From: Phyllobacterium endophyticum
GTDB taxonomy: Bacteria; Pseudomonadota; Alphaproteobacteria; Rhizobiales; Rhizobiaceae
Direction of reading: 5' to 3'
DNA length: 64,000 nt
Assembly: GCF_003010935.1 (NCBI RefSeq)
Contig: NZ_PGGN01000001.1
Span: 682,001-746,000, forward strand
The translations under genes were made by a program, and so were the position numbers. A model generated the notes under the pieces. That model ran no database searches. It saw only the letters and a list, made by a program, of their open reading frames with translations, and was not told the origin of the DNA. This document shows positions 35,829 to 44,092 of the stretch, in pieces (the stretch's first letter is position 1; each line of letters starts with the position of its first letter).

Positions 35829-36032
35829 CGGCTGGCTGAATCGCCACGGCTGGCTGTACAACCGCAAACGAGTGGGGTGGGGCCTGGCGTCTTGTGAAGG
35901 GGTCGAGGCTGGCGTCAGGCCCCAGTCGAAAAGACTTGCCTTTCGACGCATGCACTAACTGCGCATTGCTCAAAACGTTCCGGAAAAACGGGGCTTGGAT
36001 ACCTGTTGTCGGCGTACTCCCGCGTCCACGCA

Positions 36033-36311
36033 CTAGACAAGCTGTCCCCATGCAGGATTCCACAAGCGCTCGTCTTCCAAGACCACCACAATTTCGCGAA
36101 AACCGTAATTTTCCTTGACGTCCAGCGCCCGCTCCAATGCCAGGGGCACATAGGTTGCGTAAAAATAGTCTCCCTCGCCGGTCAGGCCATTCTCGGGCCA
36201 TTCGACCTCTGCGACCACCTCGCCCTGTTCCACGATTAATCGTATGCGTACGGCGTCAATGGGTGTACTATCTCCACCTAGTAGCCTGCGATATTTGGCA
36301 TTACGATCCAT
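36033..36311 (-). CDS. Small protein with C-terminal WNPAWGQL motif, unknown function
   Basis: 92 residues with an AAGGG ribosome site. It is soluble and acidic, with an alternating strand/helix pattern (RIRLIVEQGEVVAEVEWPENG, then ALERALDVKENYGFREIVVVLEDERLWNPAWGQLV). Its C-terminal third matches the 89-residue protein at 37551-37820 (see findings). It is divergent from the Crp-family gene. The 204 bases between it and mrp hold no gene I can support. Confidence 0.65.
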   Translation of the reverse strand: MDRNAKYRRLLGGDSTPIDAVRIRLIVEQGEVVAEVEWPENGLTGEGDYFYATYVPLALERALDVKENYGFREIVVVLEDERLWNPAWGQLV

Positions 36312-36479
36312 CGTACCCTTGAGCGCCGCAGGCTTTTCCTAACCCGACATCTTTCGAATAGATTATTTTCGCGGATTGTCCACTGGAGGACATGCCATTG
36401 TTCTTACATCCTAAATCGATATTTATGGTCTTTGAGAAAGCGCTGGATCGTCACTTTGTTCCTCGCGGAGAGGAGCAAA

Positions 36480-37199
36480 ATGGACCTTGTCCAATCTTCC
36501 GTTCAAAACCGACTCCTTAGGCTGTTATCGTCCGATGATTTTCAGCTTCTTGCTCCGGATCTCGATTTTAGAACGTTTTCCTTAAGAGACCAAATCGAAA
36601 AACCTGGTGTAAGTATCACCGAAGCGATGTTCCTGGAGGACGGGATCGCTTCCATTGTGGCGAAAAGTCCATTGGGCCGGGACATTGAAATCGGCTTGTC
36701 GGGCTTTGAAGGAATGACCGGTACGTCTTTGATATTGGGGTCGCAGACGACTCCACTAGCCATTTACATTCAGCTCGCGGGTTCTGGATATGGCATCAAC
36801 GCAGACAAATTGCAGGCTGCGGCGGAGAAAAGCCGCTCACTCCAGCGCATGCTGCTCAAATATACCCAGTCGCTGATCGTACAGACTGCCACGACAGCTC
36901 TCGTCAACGGCCAGGCAAACGCGGAGACACGCATGGCGCGATGGCTCCTGATGGTGCACGACCGGACTTTAGGCAATGAGCTGCAACTTACGCACGAGTT
37001 CATGTCGGTGATGCTCGGCGTGAGGCGGCCATGGGTCACGGAAACGCTGCACTCGCTTGAAGGCAAGGGTTATATCCGCTCAACCCGCGGCAAAGTCAGG
37101 ATTCAGGATCGTGCGGGATTGATCGCCGACGCCGAGGGATATTACGGCACGGCTGAGCAGGAATACGAGAAACTGCTGGGCACGCGCCTGTCGAAATAA
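36480..37199 (+). CDS. Crp/Fnr-family transcriptional regulator
   Basis: 239 residues from ATG 36480, preceded by GAGAGGAG; an upstream in-frame start exists at 36432. A cyclic-nucleotide-binding-like beta-barrel (about 15-120) and a long dimer helix precede a Crp-type winged helix (about 150-220; ETRMARWLLMVHDR, LTHEFMSVMLGVRRPWVTETLHSLEGKGYI). No Fnr-type N-terminal cysteines are seen, and the cAMP phosphate-cassette motif is not evident, so the signal is unknown. Proteins of this shape are common in Rhizobiales next to stress genes. Confidence 0.88.
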   Translation: MDLVQSSVQNRLLRLLSSDDFQLLAPDLDFRTFSLRDQIEKPGVSITEAMFLEDGIASIVAKSPLGRDIEIGLSGFEGMTGTSLILGSQTTPLAIYIQLAGSGYGINADKLQAAAEKSRSLQRMLLKYTQSLIVQTATTALVNGQANAETRMARWLLMVHDRTLGNELQLTHEFMSVMLGVRRPWVTETLHSLEGKGYIRSTRGKVRIQDRAGLIADAEGYYGTAEQEYEKLLGTRLSK

Positions 37200-37281
37200 C
37201 GGCACCGCCATATTGCGCAAACCGCCTTATGGTACGCGCCATCCGACATCATCCACTTCCAAAGCGCTTGAAAGCCGAACG

Positions 37282-37306
37282 GGAACTTCTCCGGTAGATG
37301 TGCGTT
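37282..37306 (+). promoter_or_regulatory. EcfG-type general stress promoter, perfect consensus
   Basis: GGAAC (37282-37286), 16 bases, CGTT (37303-37306) matches the alphaproteobacterial EcfG consensus GGAAC-N16/17-CGTT exactly. It ends 34 bases before the ATG of the 59-residue membrane protein. Confidence 0.85.
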
Positions 37307-37340
37307 GGGCATTGTTTTTCCTGGTATCGGAGATGCGACG

Positions 37341-37520
37341 ATGGACCAAGTGCTTTTGCTCCTATTGCTGCCGATTGCGCACCCTGTCGCCTGCGGTATC
37401 GCCGGACTGGCAATAGCGCTGTGGCGAAGGTTTCGTGCTGCCAGAAAGGGTGCCGAAAACCGCAATCATGAACGGGACAGGGTCTCTCATGGCGGCCGCA
37501 ATGCACGACTGGTGAGGTGA
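37341..37520 (+). CDS. Small single-span membrane protein under a predicted EcfG promoter
   Basis: 59 residues from ATG 37341, with GGAG 8 bases upstream. One hydrophobic helix (VLLLLLLPIAHPVACGIAGLAIALW) is followed by a basic, polar tail (RRFRAARKGAENRNHERDRVSH). On length alone this would be doubtful, but the perfect EcfG-type promoter 34 bases upstream and a good ribosome site support a real stress-induced membrane peptide. Family unknown. Confidence 0.55.
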   Translation: MDQVLLLLLLPIAHPVACGIAGLAIALWRRFRAARKGAENRNHERDRVSHGGRNARLVR

Positions 37521-37550
37521 AATGCCGTAACTGAGTGACGGGATGATCCT

Positions 37551-37820
37551 TCAGATCAACTTGCCCCAGGCCGGGTGCCACTCAACACCTTCTGCAAGTT
37601 CGACAAAGACGGGTTTCGACTCGCCATCCGCCTTGTGATTTTCAGCCACGCGAAACGCTTGTTCCGGCTCCATTTCCTCGCCGGGGAAGATGACATCATC
37701 GCTTCCGGGCCTCGCGATCTGCCGAATATATGACCTGATATTTCCGTCGGATCGATAGAGTTTGATGACCAGTGAACCCGGCTCCACAAGACTTTGCCGA
37801 AAATGATGATAGGTTCGCAT
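37551..37820 (-). CDS. Small protein with C-terminal WHPAWGKL motif, unknown function
   Basis: 89 residues, soluble. The C-terminal part (EQAFRVAENHKADGE, then VFVELAEGVEWHPAWGKLI) resembles the 92-residue protein at 36033-36311. It starts 28 bases after the phosphoesterase gene on the same strand and is therefore probably the third gene of the operon driven by the promoter at 39419-39443. Confidence 0.7.
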   Translation of the reverse strand: MRTYHHFRQSLVEPGSLVIKLYRSDGNIRSYIRQIARPGSDDVIFPGEEMEPEQAFRVAENHKADGESKPVFVELAEGVEWHPAWGKLI

Positions 37821-37848
37821 TGGTGTCTTTCATTGCGCCATGCGCAGG

Positions 37849-38571
37849 TCAGATTTCCAGAATGGCATATGGCCTTCCGGTCGGTTTCTCGATATGCGCC
37901 GCGACATTGAACACAGGCGCGCCGCCGGGCGTGACGCCTTCATAGACACCTCTATGTGCATGACCATGAACGACGGCATTGACCTTGAAACGGTCAATGG
38001 TCTCGGCGAGGCGTGACGAGCCGAGGAAGGGGTAAATCTCCGGCGGTTCTCCCGCGACGGTCGCCGCGATCGGAGCATAGTGGAGAACGACGACGGCGCG
38101 CTCGGTGTTTACCTTGCGCAGCGCATTTTCAAGACGCATCGCTTCGGCGACGCTCTCGGATACCATCGCCTTTATGGCGGGTTCGCCGAATGAACCCAGC
38201 ATGTGCCTGCCAAAGCCGCCGGCGAAACCCTTTGCGCCGACGAAGCCGACACCATTGATTTCCACCATTTGCCCATCGAGAAGATGGACGCCTGACTGAA
38301 TGAGGATCGACGAGATTTCCGTGACGGCATCGCATTGGTAATCGTGGTTTCCGAGCACCGCCACCACCGGGAGGGTGCAACCTTTCAGGTCGGCAGCCAG
38401 GGACTGCGCTTCCTGGGGCTTTCCAAGGTCGGTGAGATCGCCGGCGATGACCAGCACGTCGGCGACGTCCGAGATCTCCTTGAAAAGGTCCCTGTAGGTG
38501 ACCGACCCGTCTTCCTTGACGTGAAGGTCGGCAACTGCGGCGACCCTCATCTTGCCGTTCGATTTGCTCAT
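37849..38571 (-). CDS. Calcineurin-like metallophosphoesterase
   Basis: 240 residues from ATG 38571, with GGAGGT upstream. Dimetal phosphoesterase motifs appear in order: AVADLHVKEDG (DxH), VIAGDLTDLG (GDxxD), AVLGNHDYQCD (GNHD), VLHYAPIAAT and VVHGHAHRG (GHxH). The substrate, a nucleotide, protein or phospholipid phosphate, cannot be read. It lies 13 bases after the nucleotidyltransferase gene and shares its predicted general-stress promoter. Confidence 0.92.
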   Translation of the reverse strand: MSKSNGKMRVAAVADLHVKEDGSVTYRDLFKEISDVADVLVIAGDLTDLGKPQEAQSLAADLKGCTLPVVAVLGNHDYQCDAVTEISSILIQSGVHLLDGQMVEINGVGFVGAKGFAGGFGRHMLGSFGEPAIKAMVSESVAEAMRLENALRKVNTERAVVVLHYAPIAATVAGEPPEIYPFLGSSRLAETIDRFKVNAVVHGHAHRGVYEGVTPGGAPVFNVAAHIEKPTGRPYAILEI

Positions 38572-38584
38572 TCTGTCACCTCCG

Positions 38585-39379
38585 TCAGTCGCGCATTTCG
38601 CCTTCTCCACCAACGTCGGCGAAACCCCATTCCTTGATATCGATCTCGAAATCGGCACGCGAATACATCCTGCCCCGGCAAATCTTCATCTGGGGCAGAG
38701 GTAGATTTCTCTGTGCCGAAAGTCTGTCCAGGAGTTCATCCATGAGCCAGAGCGGAACCTTGTCGCGCTCGGAAGGATATATCCATCTGAAATTGAGCAG
38801 ATGGATCAGCAGGACCTCCCAGTGCACTTCCATGTAGCCGAGCAGCTTTTCCCAATCGATCCGGTCATGCGCCTTCAAGATGACATGTGCGACGTCGGGT
38901 CCATCATATCTGTGGCGAAGCTGGATGAAGGCTTTCGACCAGATCAGTTCCGTGGGCGCGAGGATGGCGACGGGAAGGTCATTCATCCGGACCTGCATCG
39001 CATTCTCGAACCATTGCTCGCCGACGGGCATGGTTCCATTGGATGATGCAAAGATCACGTCGAAGAAGTGCCGTCCCTTGTAGACCTTACCGAGCCAGCG
39101 ATCGTCCTCGATTTCGATGGCATATCCGCAAGATTTGAAGTGCGAAAGGATGCGTGGATAGTCGCCGGCCTTGCAGAAGATGTCGAAATCCTTGGTCGGC
39201 CTCGAAATGCCGGTATAGGCGCTCACGGCAAAAGTGCCGGCGACGAGGAAAGGGATGTTGGACCTGACCAACTCGGCAATGGCTTCGCTGACAAAGGCTT
39301 CCGCTTCCTCGTCCACCAACTGCGGCAGCGCCAGCGGCGCTTCTGGTGCATTTTCATGTGGGGCGGCGGGCCTTGGCAT
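38585..39379 (-). CDS. Nucleotidyltransferase-fold protein
   Basis: 264 residues from ATG 39379 (MPRPAAPHENAP), with AGGAGAG upstream. Pol-beta-like nucleotidyltransferase signature: FLVAGTFAVSAYTGISRPTKDFDIFCKAGD, with the DxD in KDFDIF. The domain continues through about residue 150 (APTELIWSKAFIQ), and the C-terminal 100 residues are unassigned. The substrate is unknown; related folds include aminoglycoside and AbiEii-like enzymes. It is first in an operon with the phosphoesterase and the 89-residue gene. Confidence 0.85.
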   Translation of the reverse strand: MPRPAAPHENAPEAPLALPQLVDEEAEAFVSEAIAELVRSNIPFLVAGTFAVSAYTGISRPTKDFDIFCKAGDYPRILSHFKSCGYAIEIEDDRWLGKVYKGRHFFDVIFASSNGTMPVGEQWFENAMQVRMNDLPVAILAPTELIWSKAFIQLRHRYDGPDVAHVILKAHDRIDWEKLLGYMEVHWEVLLIHLLNFRWIYPSERDKVPLWLMDELLDRLSAQRNLPLPQMKICRGRMYSRADFEIDIKEWGFADVGGEGEMRD

Positions 39380-39418
39380 GCAAACTCTCCTGAACCGTTG
39401 GTTAGTTGTTGAAGGAAC

Positions 39419-39443
39419 AACACCCGACGGAACCTGAGGTTCC
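39419..39443 (-). promoter_or_regulatory. EcfG-type promoter for the nucleotidyltransferase operon
   Basis: On the minus strand GGAAC (39443-39439), 16 bases, TGTT (39422-39419). The -10 element ends 39 bases before ATG 39379. The -35 also lies in a perfect inverted repeat CGGAACC-TGA-GGTTCCG (39428-39444). The rest of 39444-39579 holds no gene I can support. Confidence 0.8.
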
Positions 39444-39579
39444 GCCGTGGCCGAGGCCGCTGCGTCTGCGTGACACCGATGCCGAGGAGCCCGCAACCGG
39501 GGATAGGCTGCCGAGAACGTGATTGTTCGAGACAGTCGAAGTGACGGCGACTATGCGGGATAGCGTTTAGTCGCCAGGT

Positions 39580-39825
39580 TCAATCATCGGCGCGCGGCTT
39601 GTTGTGGCTGCTCTCCTGATTGAGGCCGCGAACGTCGGGACGATCGCCACTCGTGGCCTCGTCGGCTTCGGGAGCGCGAAGGTTTCCTCCCTTCCGGTAA
39701 GCCTCTCGGAGTTCCTTGGATTGTTTCAGATCGCGCTCCGCGACATCGGGCTTTACCTCGTCCTTCGGGTTCAACCCGCCTTCGATGATTTCGATCTGCC
39801 TCTCGTGGGTTTTCCTTCCAACCAT
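39580..39825 (-). CDS. Small hydrophilic, probably disordered protein
   Basis: 81 residues, strongly charged and low in hydrophobic residues (MVGRKTHERQIEIIEGGLNPKDEV at the start, NKPRADD at the end). GAAGGA lies 9 bases before the ATG. Its 5' end overlaps the 3' end of the NTF2-like gene by 55 bases in another frame. It is the last gene of a leftward series of small stress-type genes. No known domain. Confidence 0.6.
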   Translation of the reverse strand: MVGRKTHERQIEIIEGGLNPKDEVKPDVAERDLKQSKELREAYRKGGNLRAPEADEATSGDRPDVRGLNQESSHNKPRADD

Positions 39826-40283
39826 TGTTCTGATCCTTCGGGTTTGTTCGCTGTTTCAGGGCGAACCGCCAGTGGCGTTTGCTGGTGGTGCACAAGCAGC
39901 CACTGCGAATTCGCATGCGTGTATATGGAACTGCAGAGAGCCTCGTATGCCGGTTCGCTGCCCCGCTGCGCCGTTGCGCGATAGGTCAGCACGGCTACAT
40001 GCGGGTCCAGCGATACGAGGCTCTGGTTCTGCATCTCGATCTTGTTCCAGCGAGGTGCTTTGTCCAGTGCCGCAATGATCTCGTCGCCAACGAGAACGCC
40101 AGGCGGCTCGGGAAACACCATGATGCAATCGGGCGCAAGAAACGTGGTGTAATAGGCGGCGTCGCTGAGCCAGAAGCCACGTTCCATTTCCCAAAGCGCG
40201 ACGTCGCTGGAGCTGTCAGATACCACGGAGGACCTGACGAAGAACGGCAACAGCTCCGATATGCTGGAGCCAAAAAAGTTCAT
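39771..40283 (-). CDS. NTF2/SnoaL-like (DUF4440-type) protein
   Basis: 170 residues. The cone-shaped NTF2-like fold is suggested by ALWEMERGFWLSDAAYYTTFLAPDCIMVFPEPPGVLVGDEIIAAL, then VAVLTYRATAQRGSEPAYEALCSSIYTHANSQWLLVHHQQTPL. A charged tail follows (about 145-170). Such proteins may be small-ligand enzymes or binding proteins, and no catalytic residue is identified. It lies 21 bases after the 72-residue gene on the same strand. Confidence 0.8.
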   Translation of the reverse strand: MNFFGSSISELLPFFVRSSVVSDSSSDVALWEMERGFWLSDAAYYTTFLAPDCIMVFPEPPGVLVGDEIIAALDKAPRWNKIEMQNQSLVSLDPHVAVLTYRATAQRGSEPAYEALCSSIYTHANSQWLLVHHQQTPLAVRPETANKPEGSEQWLEGKPTRGRSKSSKAG

Positions 40284-40304
40284 GTCCTTACGCCTTTCCT
40301 TGGC

Positions 40305-40523
40305 TCAATCGTCGTTGAGGCGGTTAGCGGCATGATCGTGGTATTGCTCGGTCTGAATCTGTTTGCCGTCCGCGCCGCGCTCACGCGAATGTTGCGCCTT
40401 GTCCCTGTTGGAAAGAACCATGTTCTCGGGGATCGTATCTTCGGGAACCTCGGTCATCGCACCTTCACCCGAGCCTTTTCCCTGTGAACCCTTGCCGAAA
40501 TGTTTCTTGCTGGCCTGTGCCAT
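40305..40523 (-). CDS. Small hydrophilic protein, Gly/Lys-rich N-terminus
   Basis: 72 residues (MAQASKKHFGKGSQGKGSG at the start). It is polar throughout, with no hydrophobic core, signal or membrane segment, and resembles the many short hydrophilic stress proteins of Rhizobiales. It lies 32 bases after the 65-residue gene and 21 before the NTF2-like gene, in the operon driven by the promoter at 40972-40996. Confidence 0.65.
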   Translation of the reverse strand: MAQASKKHFGKGSQGKGSGEGAMTEVPEDTIPENMVLSNRDKAQHSRERGADGKQIQTEQYHDHAANRLNDD

Positions 40524-40555
40524 GGGGATTTTCCTTTCACGTCATAGGTAAGCGA

Positions 40556-40753
40556 TTACTTACCCGCCTTCTGGCGCGGGTCGTGCGTGTGATGACTGTC
40601 TCGCTCTCCGCCGCCGCCGGACACCTTGCTCCTGGAGCGCTGATCAGACTCGGCCGGCGGCTTGTCGATCTTCAGCGGTGTCTTGGCATTTTCATGCGAG
40701 GCTCCCGGGCCTCCCTGACGGATACTGGCTGGTGTCTTGGTTGATGTTGACAT
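40556..40753 (-). CDS. Small hydrophilic protein, unknown function
   Basis: 65 residues from ATG 40753 (MSTSTKTPASIRQGG); an ATG four codons upstream overlaps the previous gene. It is rich in Lys, Ser, Gly and His (GGGGERDSHHTHDPRQKAGK at the end) and probably disordered. It starts 8 bases after the preceding small gene. Confidence 0.6.
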   Translation of the reverse strand: MSTSTKTPASIRQGGPGASHENAKTPLKIDKPPAESDQRSRSKVSGGGGERDSHHTHDPRQKAGK

Positions 40754-40761
40754 GATGTACC

Positions 40762-40947
40762 TCAACGATCCTGCTGATAACCCTGGTGAGTCGTGTTGAG
40801 TTTCGTATTGCCCGTCTGGCCGCGCTTGTCCGGATTATCCGTGGCATTCGCGTGCTGGACTTCCTGTTTTTCCGCAGGTTTTGCGGCATCGCCCGGGCCT
40901 TTGGGCGAGCGATTTTCCTCGGGGACGGGGGGTGGTTTCGAAGTCAT
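40762..40947 (-). CDS. Small hydrophilic protein, first gene of a predicted EcfG operon
   Basis: 61 residues from ATG 40947 (MTSKPPPVPEENRSPKG), with AAGGAGGAA upstream. The composition is Pro, Lys, Asn, Gln and Thr rich with no hydrophobic segment, probably disordered. It is the first gene after the promoter at 40972-40996, and four or five same-strand genes follow at short spacing. Confidence 0.65.
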   Translation of the reverse strand: MTSKPPPVPEENRSPKGPGDAAKPAEKQEVQHANATDNPDKRGQTGNTKLNTTHQGYQQDR

Positions 40948-40971
40948 GATAATTCCTCCTTCTCGTTTCAA

Positions 40972-40996
40972 AACCAATCAATCCACCGAATGTTCC
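40972..40996 (-). promoter_or_regulatory. EcfG-type promoter for the small-protein operon
   Basis: On the minus strand GGAAC (40996-40992), 16 bases, GGTT (40975-40972). The -10 ends 24 bases before ATG 40947. The fourth -10 position varies from C to G, which is tolerated in this promoter class. Confidence 0.75.
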
Positions 40997-41031
40997 ATCC
41001 AAATGGGCGGCTTCGCCGGACCGGAATCGCT

Positions 41032-41056
41032 GGAACATTCGGCCGGCATCATTGTT
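41032..41056 (+). promoter_or_regulatory. EcfG-type promoter for the MBL-fold gene
   Basis: GGAAC (41032-41036), 16 bases, TGTT (41053-41056), facing right, back-to-back with the site at 40972-40996. It lies 102 bases upstream of GTG 41159. Confidence 0.75.
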
Positions 41057-41158
41057 TCACAGCGACCGGGCAAGTGGCGCAGATGAAGCGCGCCCGAGGC
41101 TCATGGATGAACCCTTCCAAGCGCCGCAACAGGGACATTCACCAGGAGGAGCACAGCA

Positions 41159-41992
41159 GTGAGCAAGCAGATACCCATGCCGGATTCCGCCGTTGCCGAG
41201 ACGTTCAAGGATGAGGCGGGCGCAATCGAAGTCCGCAACGACCTGACATACCTGACGACGGGCATCGTCAACGTGGCGTTCATTGGCTTCCCGAAGAACG
41301 ACTGGGTGCTTGTCGACGCCGGTCTTTCAACCTATGCCGGAACAATAATCGAAGCGGCGGATCAGCGCTTTGGCAGCCTCGCGACGCCGCGTTGCATCAT
41401 CCTCACGCATGGTCATTTCGACCATATAGGATCGCTGGAGGCGCTTCTGGAACGATGGGACGTTCCCGTCTATGCGCATCCAGCGGAGTTCCCCTACCTG
41501 GACGGAAGCCAATCCTATCCGCCGCCGGATCCGTCCGCCGGTGGCGGGGCAATGACGCTGCTTTCCCCGCTCTTTCCCCGCGGCCCGATCGACATATCGC
41601 GCTGGCTGAGGGAGCTTCCGGGGGACGGCACGGTGCCGGGGCTGGAGGGCTGGAGGTGGTTACATACGCCCGGTCACACGCAAGGGCATATCTCGCTATG
41701 GCGGGAGGCGGACAGGACGCTTGTGGCGGGCGACGCATTCATCACGACGCGGCAGGAGTCCGCCTATCACGCTCTTGCGCAGACGCCGGAACTGCATGGC
41801 CCGCCGCGCTACTTCACCCCCGACTGGAACGCTGCGGAGGCATCTGTCCGCAAGCTTGCGGATCTGGAGCCGGAGCTTGTCGTGACCGGCCACGGCAAGG
41901 CGATGGCGGGGCCGGAACTGCAGGCGGGCCTGCACCGCCTGGCAGACAATTTCGGCTCGATCGCGGTGCCTCATTCCCGGACCCGACCATAA
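41159..41992 (+). CDS. MBL-fold metallo-hydrolase
   Basis: 277 residues from GTG 41159, chosen because AGGAGGAGC precedes it and the frame matches. Metallo-beta-lactamase motifs: IILTHGHFDHIGSL (HxHxDH), LHTPGHTQGHISLW, LVAGDAF and VVTGHGKAM. This is the generic hydrolase group (glyoxalase II-like, lactonase-like), not a beta-lactamase. It has a predicted general-stress promoter. Confidence 0.92.
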   Translation: MSKQIPMPDSAVAETFKDEAGAIEVRNDLTYLTTGIVNVAFIGFPKNDWVLVDAGLSTYAGTIIEAADQRFGSLATPRCIILTHGHFDHIGSLEALLERWDVPVYAHPAEFPYLDGSQSYPPPDPSAGGGAMTLLSPLFPRGPIDISRWLRELPGDGTVPGLEGWRWLHTPGHTQGHISLWREADRTLVAGDAFITTRQESAYHALAQTPELHGPPRYFTPDWNAAEASVRKLADLEPELVVTGHGKAMAGPELQAGLHRLADNFGSIAVPHSRTRP

Positions 41993-42014
41993 AAGGCTGG
42001 TGCCCTCCTTGCGG

Positions 42015-42039
42015 GGAACAATCTCAAGTTCCTGGTGTT
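42015..42039 (+). promoter_or_regulatory. EcfG-type promoter for the ferritin-like gene
   Basis: GGAAC (42015-42019), 16 bases, TGTT (42036-42039), ending 32 bases before ATG 42072. Confidence 0.8.
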
Positions 42040-42071
42040 GGAGGGCGATGATGAAAAAAGAGGAGAGTGAT

Positions 42072-42581
42072 ATGACTGCTGCAGACACAGCACTGAACAA
42101 CTGGCTGCGTGACGCTCACGCCATGGAAGAACAGGCGCTTACGATGCTGAAAGGCCAGGAGAGCCGTCTCGAAAGTTATCCCGAGTTGCGCGCGCGTATT
42201 TCCCAGCACATCAGGGAGACGGAGCGCCAGGCGCAAATGGTTCGCGGATGCCTGGAGCGGCGCAACACCGATACGTCCGGCCTCAAGGACGCGGGCGCCA
42301 AGCTGACAGCTCTCGGCCAGTCGCTGAGCGGGATCTTCGTCAGCGACGAAGTGATGAAGGGCTCACTCGCCAGCTACACTTTCGAACATATGGAAATTGC
42401 GAGTTACCGCATGCTGGCGGAAGCTGCCTCTTTCGTAGGCGACAGCGAAACCCAGCGCGTCTGCGAGGAGATAATGCGCGAGGAGGAAGCCATGGCACAG
42501 TGGCTTGCCGAGCACGCAGGCGAGGTTACCCGCACCTACCTCGCGCGGGAAGAGACGGATTCGGACAGAGCCAAGCGTTGA
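42072..42581 (+). CDS. Ferritin-like DUF892 (YciE/YciF family) protein
   Basis: 169 residues from ATG 42072, with AGGAG upstream. A four-helix ferritin-like bundle is indicated by LRDAHAMEEQALTMLKGQ, ARISQHIRETERQAQMVRGCLE, YTFEHMEIASYRMLAEAA and CEEIMREEEAMAQWLAEH, each carrying Glu/His metal-ligand-like residues. YciF-type proteins are stress-induced, and in other Rhizobiales they are frequent EcfG targets, consistent with the promoter just upstream. Confidence 0.9.
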   Translation: MTAADTALNNWLRDAHAMEEQALTMLKGQESRLESYPELRARISQHIRETERQAQMVRGCLERRNTDTSGLKDAGAKLTALGQSLSGIFVSDEVMKGSLASYTFEHMEIASYRMLAEAASFVGDSETQRVCEEIMREEEAMAQWLAEHAGEVTRTYLAREETDSDRAKR

Positions 42582-42669
42582 CCCCTGAAAACGGCACGCC
42601 TTCAAAGACGCCGCTTCTGTTGGGCCCCGATATCGGCTAGTTTGCCCTGACGGGATATCGGGGGGACAG

Positions 42670-43308
42670 ATGAGTAAAGTCGAGGAGCCGGCAGCGCGCC
42701 GGCCTATTGCAGCGCGGTCGTCGTCTTGGGCGATCGGACTGAGCAAATATCTCGTCAGGACTGGTGTTACGGCCAATGGCATCTCGGTGCTCTCCGTCTT
42801 TTTTGCCGCCGCTGGCGGGGCGCTTACAGGATTTGGCAATCAACACCCGGTTGCATGGATCGCAGCGGCGGCCTGCGTGCAGATGAGGCTGGTCTGCAAT
42901 CTTCTCGACGGAATGGTGGCGATCGAAGGCGGGAAGAAGACCCCGAACGGACCGCTTTATAACGAATTTCCCGACAGGATCGCCGATAGTCTCCTATTGG
43001 TTCCGGTCGGCTATGCGACAGGTCTGCCATGGCTCGGCTGGCTGTGTGCACTCCTGGCGGCGCTGACCGCCTATATAAGGGTATTTGGCGGGTCATTGGG
43101 TCTGCCCCAGGACTTCAGCGGTATCATGGCGAAGCAGCGCCGCATGGCAGCGCTGACGGTTGGCCTTGTGGCGCAAACAATCGAGACCGTGGTCTTTGGT
43201 ACCGTCTGGTCGCTTGGCGTCACGTTGGCGGCCATCACCGCCGGCAGCCTCGTAACTTGCATAACCCGGACGATCTCCCTGACCGGCAGTCTCGAAGGCC
43301 GCCAATAA
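42670..43308 (+). CDS. CDP-alcohol phosphatidyltransferase family protein with altered metal site
   Basis: 212 residues, about five or six membrane helices. The CDP-OH-P motif DxxDGxxARx8Gx3Dx3D is recognisable but changed: N77-L-L-D80-G81, then A84-I85 instead of AR, G94, N98, D102. Two of the four metal-coordinating Asp are Asn. The family attaches alcohols to CDP-diacylglycerol. This may be a different catalytic subset or an inactive form. A GGGGGACAG ribosome site precedes ATG 42670. Confidence 0.85.
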   Translation: MSKVEEPAARRPIAARSSSWAIGLSKYLVRTGVTANGISVLSVFFAAAGGALTGFGNQHPVAWIAAAACVQMRLVCNLLDGMVAIEGGKKTPNGPLYNEFPDRIADSLLLVPVGYATGLPWLGWLCALLAALTAYIRVFGGSLGLPQDFSGIMAKQRRMAALTVGLVAQTIETVVFGTVWSLGVTLAAITAGSLVTCITRTISLTGSLEGRQ

Positions 43309-43330
43309 GCATCGCTCGGGGCGAACCCGT

Positions 43331-44092
43331 TCAGCTTTCGCCCTCATTCTCGATGTGGACGATGGCTCCGCAATCCTTGCAATGCACTGCATCCGCGTCA
43401 TGCCGGCTGAGCCCGCAATTGGAGCATACGTAGCGGACCTTGTTCGGCCTGAACAACACCTGTGCGAGGCGCAGGAACAGCGTCACGCCGAAGATCATGA
43501 TCGACACGGATATCAACCGGCCCGTCGTGCCCTCAAGCGTAATATCTCCGAAACCCGTGGTCGTGAGCGCCGTGACGGTAAAATACAGCGCATCGGCATA
43601 ATTGGCGATTTCCGCGTTTGTCCGGTGCTGCGTCTCATAGACCAGCCCGGTCATGATAAACAGAAAGACCAGGAGGTTGATGACAGCGATCAACGCATCT
43701 TCATGCTGGCGCACGAATGGGAAATCGATGCGCAGGCGGGCGAGAACCTGATAGGTGTGCAGGAGCCGGACGGTGCGAAGTATCCGCAGAAAACCGAAAC
43801 CTTCCCCGGAGAGGGGGGCAAGAAACGAGAAAATGGCGACGAGATCCGCGATTGTGGATGGCCGAAAGAACGAACGCATCGTCATTTCGCCTATGGAAAA
43901 ACGAGCCAGAACGTCGAGCAGGATAATCAGTCCGATGCCCGCGTCCACCCACTCGACGACTTGTGACCGTGGCAGAAATGACGTGCCGATAACGAACAAT
44001 ATGGTGATTATATCAAAGACCAGCAGGACGTACCGGAACAGGTGGGCCCTGTCGGTATTTCCCTCGTACAATTCTGATAACAACTTTCTCAC
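43331..44092 (-). CDS. Voltage-gated-like potassium channel protein with C-terminal zinc ribbon
   Basis: 253 residues. S1-S4-like segments (VLLVFDIITILFVIGTSFLP; VDAGIGLIILLDVLARF; IADLVAIFSFLAPL; Arg-bearing RILRTVRLLHTYQVLARLR) are followed by a pore helix with selectivity filter TTTGFGD and S6. The C-terminal tail carries CSNCG and CKDCG, a zinc-ribbon pair typical of rubredoxin-like tails. It probably passes K+ or other monovalent cations. The tail is unusual and may sense metal or redox. Confidence 0.9.
   Translation of the reverse strand: MRKLLSELYEGNTDRAHLFRYVLLVFDIITILFVIGTSFLPRSQVVEWVDAGIGLIILLDVLARFSIGEMTMRSFFRPSTIADLVAIFSFLAPLSGEGFGFLRILRTVRLLHTYQVLARLRIDFPFVRQHEDALIAVINLLVFLFIMTGLVYETQHRTNAEIANYADALYFTVTALTTTGFGDITLEGTTGRLISVSIMIFGVTLFLRLAQVLFRPNKVRYVCSNCGLSRHDADAVHCKDCGAIVHIENEGES

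What the first reader, a model, noticed from the sequence alone, without database searches (positions are those of the whole stretch)
37282..42581. General stress response island with five EcfG-type promoters
Five sites match GGAAC-N16-NGTT within 5 kb, all with 16-base spacing, all intergenic, all facing the next gene and ending 24-102 bases from a start codon: 37282-37306 (+), 39419-39443 (-), 40972-40996 (-), 41032-41056 (+), 42015-42039 (+). The pattern fixes eight bases, so about 0.2 chance matches are expected in both strands of 5-6 kb. The genes served (a small membrane protein, NTase/phosphoesterase operon, small hydrophilic proteins, MBL hydrolase, YciF-like ferritin) fit a stress regulon. 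A dense cluster of separate EcfG units is unusual because the regulon is normally scattered.
Basis: partly seen in the sequence, partly recalled or inferred. Interest (0 to 1): 0.72.

Follow-up and report, generated by a model that had tools for sequence, protein, structure and literature searches.

The report
Stress-response gene cluster, five EcfG promoters
A stretch of a soil bacterium's genome carries five separate switches for the cell's general stress response; comparison with related bacteria indicates that four of them are genuine, and the same genome holds about eight such clusters, so this one is typical rather than exceptional.

Summary
The genome has a phyR-nepR-ecfG locus with two HWE/HisKA2-type kinases. 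Upstream of orthologs in relatives the motif recurs for NTase 6/6, YciF 13/17, MBL 4/6 and the small-protein operon 6/9, essentially only at spacing 17 or 18; distant MBL homologs have it in 0/23. Of 80 further NTase-phosphoesterase loci, 72 have it within 350 nt and 8 have it before one extra co-directional ORF. The site before the small membrane protein (37282) has no comparative support. So four are very probably real EcfG promoters. The claim of unusual density fails: of 228 places genome-wide, 83 have two others within 5 kb (random mean 14.7), one 5-kb stretch is denser and one equals this. In relatives the modules mostly lie apart, each with its own promoter, yet NTase loci are often site-rich (3.65 versus 0.65 per 10 kb). 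Best reading: one of about eight general-stress clusters in a probable Phyllobacterium, built from portable promoter-plus-gene modules. No in vivo test was possible.

The parts
37282..37306 (+). P1, EcfG-type promoter GGAAC-N17-GTT before a 59-aa membrane protein gene
   Evidence: exact match; 34 nt to ATG; no comparative support: homologs in 1 of 148 other genomes, none with an upstream site
37341..37520 (+). small membrane protein, 59 aa (smTM59)
   Evidence: ORF; no Pfam or NCBIfam hit
37551..37820 (-). 89-aa protein, possibly third gene of the NTase operon
   Evidence: ORF 28 bases after MPE; no Pfam hit; near NTase in 2 of 80 other loci; 35% identical over 37 aa to the product of 36033-36311
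37849..38571 (-). calcineurin-like metallophosphoesterase (MPE), second gene of operon
   Evidence: Pfam Metallophos 7.3e-16; within 400 nt downstream of NTase in 79 of 80 loci
38585..39379 (-). polymerase-beta-type nucleotidyltransferase (NTase), first gene of operon
   Evidence: NTP_transf_5 below cut-off; AF2 model pLDDT 78.6 matches MenT1, ANT(2'')-Ia, LnuA, JHP933
39419..39443 (-). P2, EcfG-type promoter of NTase-MPE
   Evidence: 6 of 6 orthologs; 72 of 80 within 350 nt, 8 of 80 before an extra ORF
39580..39825 (-). 81-aa hydrophilic protein, last gene of small-protein operon
   Evidence: ORF; same order in L103 and L104
39771..40283 (-). DUF4440 protein
   Evidence: Pfam 1.7e-08; same order in L103, L104
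40305..40523 (-). 72-aa hydrophilic protein (p72)
   Evidence: no family; homologs in 15 of 148 other genomes
40556..40753 (-). 65-aa hydrophilic protein
   Evidence: no family; conserved order in L103, L104
40762..40947 (-). 61-aa hydrophilic protein (p61), first gene of operon
   Evidence: no family; homologs in 9 of 148 other genomes
40972..40996 (-). P3, EcfG-type promoter of small-protein operon
   Evidence: upstream of 6 of 9 p61 orthologs; the same 25-mer in L103 and one base different in L104, two congeners
41032..41056 (+). P4, EcfG-type promoter of MBL hydrolase, divergent from P3
   Evidence: upstream of 4 of 6 orthologs, 0 of 23 distant homologs
41159..41992 (+). metallo-beta-lactamase-fold hydrolase
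   Evidence: Pfam Lactamase_B 5.6e-41; none of 19 NCBIfam hits reaches its cut-off
42015..42039 (+). P5, EcfG-type promoter of YciF-like gene
   Evidence: upstream of 13 of 17 orthologs
42072..42581 (+). DUF892 / YciF-like ferritin-fold protein
   Evidence: Pfam DUF892 7.6e-44
42670..43308 (+). CDP-alcohol phosphatidyltransferase-like protein, possibly read through from P5
   Evidence: Pfam hit below cut-off; 88 bases after YciF, no site of its own; membership uncertain

Best explanation
The locus is one of about eight general-stress-response (GSR) clusters in the genome of a probable Phyllobacterium. Phosphorylated PhyR would bind NepR and free EcfG, which starts transcription at five separate promoters: a small membrane protein (P1), an NTase-phosphoesterase operon, perhaps with an 89-aa gene (P2), a five-gene operon of four small hydrophilic proteins and a DUF4440 protein (P3), an MBL-fold hydrolase (P4) and a YciF-like ferritin-fold protein (P5). 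Each promoter travels with its gene or operon: in relatives the modules keep their EcfG site but mostly lie at other places. Shown here: site positions, motif conservation for P2-P5, separation of modules, core regulator genes, clustering of the motif. Inferred: EcfG dependence in vivo, operon limits, protein functions, and assembly of the cluster by accretion.
For: Exact sites. Ortholog footprinting with spacing control: spacing 17 in 26 of 54 upstreams, 18 in 7, every other spacing 8-28 in 0-2. NTase: 72 of 80 within 350 nt; the other 8 have a site 424-784 nt upstream with a co-directional ORF in between. Weak MBL homologs 0 of 23. An ECF sigma gene next to nepR and phyR, with HWE/HisKA2-type kinases. 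Modules elsewhere in relatives. Clustering genome-wide; spacing 18, by which the regions were not chosen, is also raised in the other cluster regions, 24 against 5-19 at other spacings. GGAAC-N16-CGTT is the EcfG1 motif of R. etli (PMC3892343, passages seen).
Against: No transcript data. P1 has no comparative support. The motif is missing at 3 of 9 p61, 2 of 6 MBL and 4 of 17 YciF orthologs. p72, an internal operon gene here, has a site at only 4 of 16. Weak YciF homologs have it as often (9 of 13), so the YciF result is not confined to close orthologs. In five more distant NTase loci a strict site lies within 300 nt in 2. Genome-wide the pattern is not above its reversed control (241 against 332), so many of the 241 matches must be chance. 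Some modules do occur near each other elsewhere: YciF and p72 within 0.5 kb in L105, YciF with p72 in L109 and with MBL in L110, 15 kb apart.
Confidence: 0.88

Rival explanations
1. The sites are real EcfG promoters but the cluster is an ordinary product of accessory DNA: stress genes land in permissive regions and their nearness has no regulatory meaning.
For: Partner genes differ between genomes: of 80 NTase loci (flanks up to 6 kb) 1 has YciF and none the small-protein, DUF4440 or MBL genes at E <= 1e-4. Cluster regions C5:360-400 kb and C6:205-245 kb share duplicated segments. In five of the six NTase loci of the first set only 0-3 places besides the own promoter lie in 20 kb.
Against: The 80 NTase loci, chosen without regard to flanking sites, carry 3.65 places per 10 kb against 0.65 for control spacings, and 58 of 80 have at least 3 per 10 kb. 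This shows clustering, not a function of clustering.
Confidence: 0.5
2. The whole stretch is one horizontally acquired mobile island.
For: NTase is absent from all 19 congeners searched; GC dips to 0.54 at 36-38 kb.
Against: Modules mostly occur apart in relatives; GC of most of the cluster (0.57-0.62) is like its flanks; no tRNA in the window. An empty site could not be compared because the flank is not syntenic; integrases were not searched for.
Confidence: 0.1
3. The GGAAC sites serve another ECF sigma factor or a regulator that binds the dyad.
For: P2 and P5 contain palindromes around GGAAC; spacing 8 is raised upstream of NTase, 10 of 80. In S. meliloti 27 of 40 RpoE6 targets overlap the RpoE2 regulon (PMC6180224, passages).
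Against: -35 GGAAC and -10 GTT at spacing 17-18 is the EcfG signature in print; P1, P3 and P4 show no such palindrome. The phyR-nepR-ecfG locus of this genome carries the same pattern before phyR.
Confidence: 0.05
4. Chance cluster of motif matches.
For: The whole-genome count is below the reversed-pattern control.
Against: Spacing-specific conservation at orthologs and position before start codons.
Confidence: 0.02

Closest known systems
Sinorhizobium meliloti RpoE2 (sigma E2) regulon
   Same: GSR sigma factor of group ECF15, same promoter type, most targets of unknown function (PMC6180224, passages). S. meliloti RCAM1115 plasmid p_2 has NTase-MPE behind such a site, with further sites nearby; the annotated NTase start lies upstream of that site, so I take a later start.
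   Different: Its neighbours there are other genes. The word cluster has 0 occurrences in the main texts of PMC3616915 and PMC6180224.
Rhizobium etli EcfG1/EcfG2 regulons
   Same: GGAAC-N16-CGTT motif (PMC3892343, passages). R. etli CIAT 652 plasmid pC has 10 matches at spacing 17 or 18 in the 12.7 kb around NTase-MPE.
   Different: Other genes; the base before GTT in P1-P5 is C, T, G, T and T.
Phyllobacterium zundukense plasmid p_unnamed1 cluster (NZ_CP104972.1, 329-349 kb)
   Same: DUF892 gene with the same promoter type, a Crp/Fnr regulator, a ferritin-like protein, 11 matches at spacing 17 or 18 in 20 kb.
   Different: Plasmid-borne, carries a sigma-70 family gene, no NTase, MBL or small-protein operon.
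MenT1 / ANT(2'')-Ia / LnuA / JHP933 nucleotidyltransferases
   Same: Predicted fold of the NTase.
   Different: 13-16% identity in those matches; target unknown; partner here is a phosphoesterase.

Membership tests
EcfG (ECF15) general-stress promoter | -35 GGAAC and -10 (C)GTT, 16-17 nt apart | tested here: met
   all five GGAAC-N17-GTT; C before GTT in 1 of 5
EcfG (ECF15) general-stress promoter | lies shortly upstream of and faces a gene | tested here: met
   24-102 nt
EcfG (ECF15) general-stress promoter | conserved upstream of orthologs (P2-P5) | tested here: met
EcfG (ECF15) general-stress promoter | conserved upstream of orthologs (P1) | tested here: not met
   two hits in one other genome and one own paralog, none with an upstream site
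EcfG (ECF15) general-stress promoter | genome encodes EcfG, NepR, PhyR | tested here: met
   EcfG assigned by sigma-70 domains and position next to nepR and phyR
EcfG (ECF15) general-stress promoter | transcription lost in ecfG or phyR mutant | not testable with these tools
   needs RNA work
Mobile genomic island | inherited as one block next to tRNA or integrase | tested here: inconclusive
   no tRNA; modules mostly separate in relatives; integrase not searched, empty site not found
Polymerase-beta nucleotidyltransferase | NTase fold with GT...DxD motif | tested here: met
   fold match; G48, T49, D64, D66, D107 invariant in 19 sequences; the motif is recalled
Polymerase-beta nucleotidyltransferase | nucleotidyl transfer activity | not testable with these tools
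   needs assay

The most novel reading that the evidence does not exclude
In Rhizobiaceae and relatives the EcfG regulon is built from portable cassettes, each a gene or operon with its own EcfG promoter, that repeatedly and independently gather into stress-response clusters on chromosomes and plasmids. Among them is a tightly paired, EcfG-driven NTase-phosphoesterase operon found in several alphaproteobacterial orders that may modify and de-modify an RNA, protein or metabolite during stress.
Probability: 0.35. Interest if true: 0.65.

Novelty: new member of a known kind. Interest (0 to 1): 0.45.

Why it matters
The alphaproteobacterial general stress response is known mainly through its regulators; most of its targets are genes of unknown function. 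If the targets gather in clusters, motif density becomes a way to find GSR genes without mutants, and why the cassettes gather becomes a question that can be tested. The NTase-phosphoesterase operon, with an EcfG-type site before the gene or before a preceding ORF in 80 of 80 loci examined, is a well-defined candidate effector for biochemistry.

Tried and rejected
Uniqueness of the cluster: rejected by the whole-genome scan. One mobile island: not supported; no tRNA; the search for an empty site anchored on the neighbouring channel gene gave no synteny in 5 of 5 congener regions. smTM59 as a conserved target: two hits in one other genome plus a paralog on own contig C9 with a stop inside, none with an upstream site. 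p72 as an independent unit: 4 of 16. Direct link to S. meliloti RpoE2 promoters: the first 18 bases of six promoter strings shown in PMC6180224 were sought in the loci then held (only one S. meliloti stretch among them), none matched, so no experimental link was made; supplements were not open to me. Literature: searches showed in their listings no paper on clustered EcfG targets or on this NTase pair; only passages of four papers were read. MPE had no PDB sequence hit at E <= 0.01.

Limits of the numbers: relatives' loci are the best-ranked ones handed out (at most 30 per search, own included), not all matches; one YciF locus (L045) gave no row. YciF 13 of 17 includes two second copies (L110, L114) added by hand; without them 11 of 15. 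On the opposite strand the same upstreams have spacing 17 in 8 and 18 in 3 of 54, which divergent promoters would give. The 80 NTase loci are the best 80 of 489 and in part closely related. The regions were chosen by spacing-17 density, so only the spacing-18 count is free of that choice. The random placements ignore gene layout. 'About eight clusters' counts separate regions holding at least 4 places in 5 kb: 11 windows in 8 regions. Genus Phyllobacterium is inferred: same-genus genome G013 has contig lengths equal to two P. zundukense records. The PhyR-NepR partner switch is general knowledge, in line with passages.

Full report
Observation. The five sites are exact, intergenic, and face genes at 34, 39, 24, 102 and 32 nt. 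The window has 8 matches against 1.54 expected; 5 of 8 fall here. No site of spacing 18 exists in 36000-43500.

Genes. Pfam gives a Crp-type HTH protein (36432), a metallophosphoesterase, NTP_transf_5 below its cut-off, DUF4440, an MBL-fold hydrolase, DUF892, and a CDP-alcohol phosphatidyltransferase hit below its cut-off. The small hydrophilic proteins and the 59-aa membrane protein have no family. Gene spacing suggests five units: P1 smTM59; P2 NTase-MPE, perhaps with the 89-aa gene; P3 p61-p65-p72-DUF4440-p81; P4 MBL; P5 YciF, possibly with the CDP-alcohol transferase. Operon limits are inferred.

Regulator. The genome has one NepR match. The fetched locus encodes a sigma-70 family factor next to NepR and PhyR, taken as EcfG, and two kinases with HWE/HisKA_2 domains. 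It carries the pattern 59 nt before phyR and 22 nt before one kinase.

Conservation. I searched 149 genomes, the own one included, for NTase (7 with a match), YciF (55), MBL (128, mostly distant), p72 (16), p61 (10) and smTM59 (2). In the 300 nt upstream of orthologs (at least 40% identity and 70% cover; best-ranked loci only) the motif stood at NTase 6/6, YciF 13/17, MBL 4/6, p61 6/9, p72 4/16; distant MBL homologs 0/23; weaker YciF homologs 9/13. Pooled, spacing 17 occurs in 26 of 54 and 18 in 7 of 54; other spacings 8-28 in 0-2. A scan of genome contigs found 489 stretches encoding NTase relatives, of which 80 were kept. In 72 of 80 a site of spacing 17 or 18 lies within 350 nt before the match (40 with spacing 17, 32 with 18); other spacings 9-29 occur in 0-2, but spacing 8 in 10. 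The other 8 have a site 424-784 nt upstream (nearest one), and in all 8 a co-directional ORF lies between: in most a small hydrophilic protein ending NADN(Q/P)E or like it, in L183 an ECF-type sigma factor by its look. MPE follows in 79 of 80. The 127 plasmid records with an NTase match, one of them a 14% fragment, come from seven genera, all alphaproteobacterial to my knowledge. Of five more distant examples, MPE is adjacent in 5 of 5. A strict site lies within 300 nt of the annotated start in the two Sphingobium records and at 340 nt in Bradyrhizobium; Bradyrhizobium and Skermanella have GGAAC-N17-ATT at 50 and 57 nt; Azospirillum has none within 1 kb.

Modularity. Around the NTase in six relatives none of the other modules of this window is found in 20 kb, apart from a marginal hit for YciF inside MPE in one. 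In two congeners the P3 operon keeps gene order and a promoter that is identical (L103) or one base different (L104), but NTase, MBL and YciF are not in the 20 kb. YciF occurs elsewhere with its own site. Exceptions: YciF and p72 are 0.5 kb apart in L105; YciF and p72 (L109) and YciF and MBL (L110) are about 15 kb apart.

Density. The full list of 241 matches (79+66+96) gives 228 distinct places. In 5-kb windows the best are C5:685965-690259 (6), C6:216758-219440 (5) and this locus (5); eight more have 4; these 11 windows fall in 8 separate regions, one of them the phyR-nepR-ecfG locus. In 25 kb, C6:216758-238062 has 14 and C9:242516-267242 has 13, against a maximum of 10 in 2000 random placements. 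83 of 228 places have two others within 5 kb (random mean 14.7, maximum 35). So the motif is clustered here and this locus is one of about eight clusters. Against this, the pattern as a whole is rarer than its reversed control, so position and conservation, not count, carry the case.

Generality. The 80 NTase loci were chosen without regard to flanking sites. With the 350 nt before NTase masked they hold 3.65 places per 10 kb against 0.65 for control spacing pairs; 58 of 80 reach 3 per 10 kb. Means are 3.89 in Rhizobium (25 loci), 4.58 in Microvirga (13), 2.59 in Neorhizobium (12), 3.62 in Sinorhizobium (11); the single Mesorhizobium locus shows no excess (0.78 against 1.12). The first six NTase loci are mixed: one has 6 places in 20 kb, the others 1-4, own promoter included. 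Flanks of YciF, MBL and p61 orthologs show 1.98, 1.42 and 1.54 per 10 kb (9, 3 and 4 places) against 0.47, 0.61 and 0.50; weak MBL homologs 0.59 against 0.57. Six 50-kb background stretches of three plasmids gave 0.4-1.8 per 10 kb, while the stretches chosen around NTase or YciF on the same plasmids gave 5.5-7.9.

NTase. AlphaFold2 on 19 sequences gave pLDDT 78.6, poor at both ends; Foldseek's best PDB matches are MenT1, ANT(2'')-Ia, LnuA, TM1012 and JHP933. A stress-induced transferase paired with a phosphoesterase suggests a modify/de-modify pair; this is inference.

Literature. R. etli EcfG1 recognises GGAAC-N16-CGTT, and 19 of 56 units lowered in the mutant carry it (PMC3892343, passages); S. 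melonis EcfG uses GGAAC-N17-20-GTT (PMC6599016, passages); in S. meliloti 76 and, by a later cut-off, 93 RpoE2-dependent genes have a mapped start behind the motif (PMC3616915, PMC6180224, passages). Nothing in the passages and listings I saw describes clustering of the targets.

Verdict. Observation confirmed; the EcfG reading very likely for four sites and plausible for the fifth; uniqueness not supported. The interest lies in recurrent clustering and in the NTase-phosphoesterase operon.

Noticed in passing
G000:C5:360001-400000 and G000:C6:205001-245000 (L133, L134, L129, L130): Two larger EcfG-site clusters share duplicated segments (up to about 90% identical) and repeated promoter-plus-gene units encoding a ~62-aa protein that begins MADDK(T/N)KRGARDRSTV.
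   Followed up: partly
39425-39447 and 42015-42032: P2 lies on an inverted repeat with a 10-pair stem and P5 contains GGAAC-N8-GTTCC; spacing 8 is also raised upstream of NTase, 10 of 80. Meaning unknown.
   Followed up: no
36033-36311 and 37551-37820 (-): Two small unnamed proteins near each other are 35% identical over their last 37 residues or so.
   Followed up: no
L228 (NZ_CP104972.1 329000-348900): Plasmid cluster in P. zundukense with 11 matches at spacing 17 or 18, DUF892, Crp/Fnr, KGG, nutrient-deprivation protein and its own sigma-70 family gene.
   Followed up: partly
L183, upstream of 6001: In a Rhizobium tropici genome the NTase follows a 200-aa ORF that looks like an ECF sigma factor, itself behind an EcfG-type site.
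   Followed up: no
35957-35981 (-): A further GGAAC-N17-GTT between mrp and the 92-aa ORF, facing only an ORF antisense to mrp.
   Followed up: no
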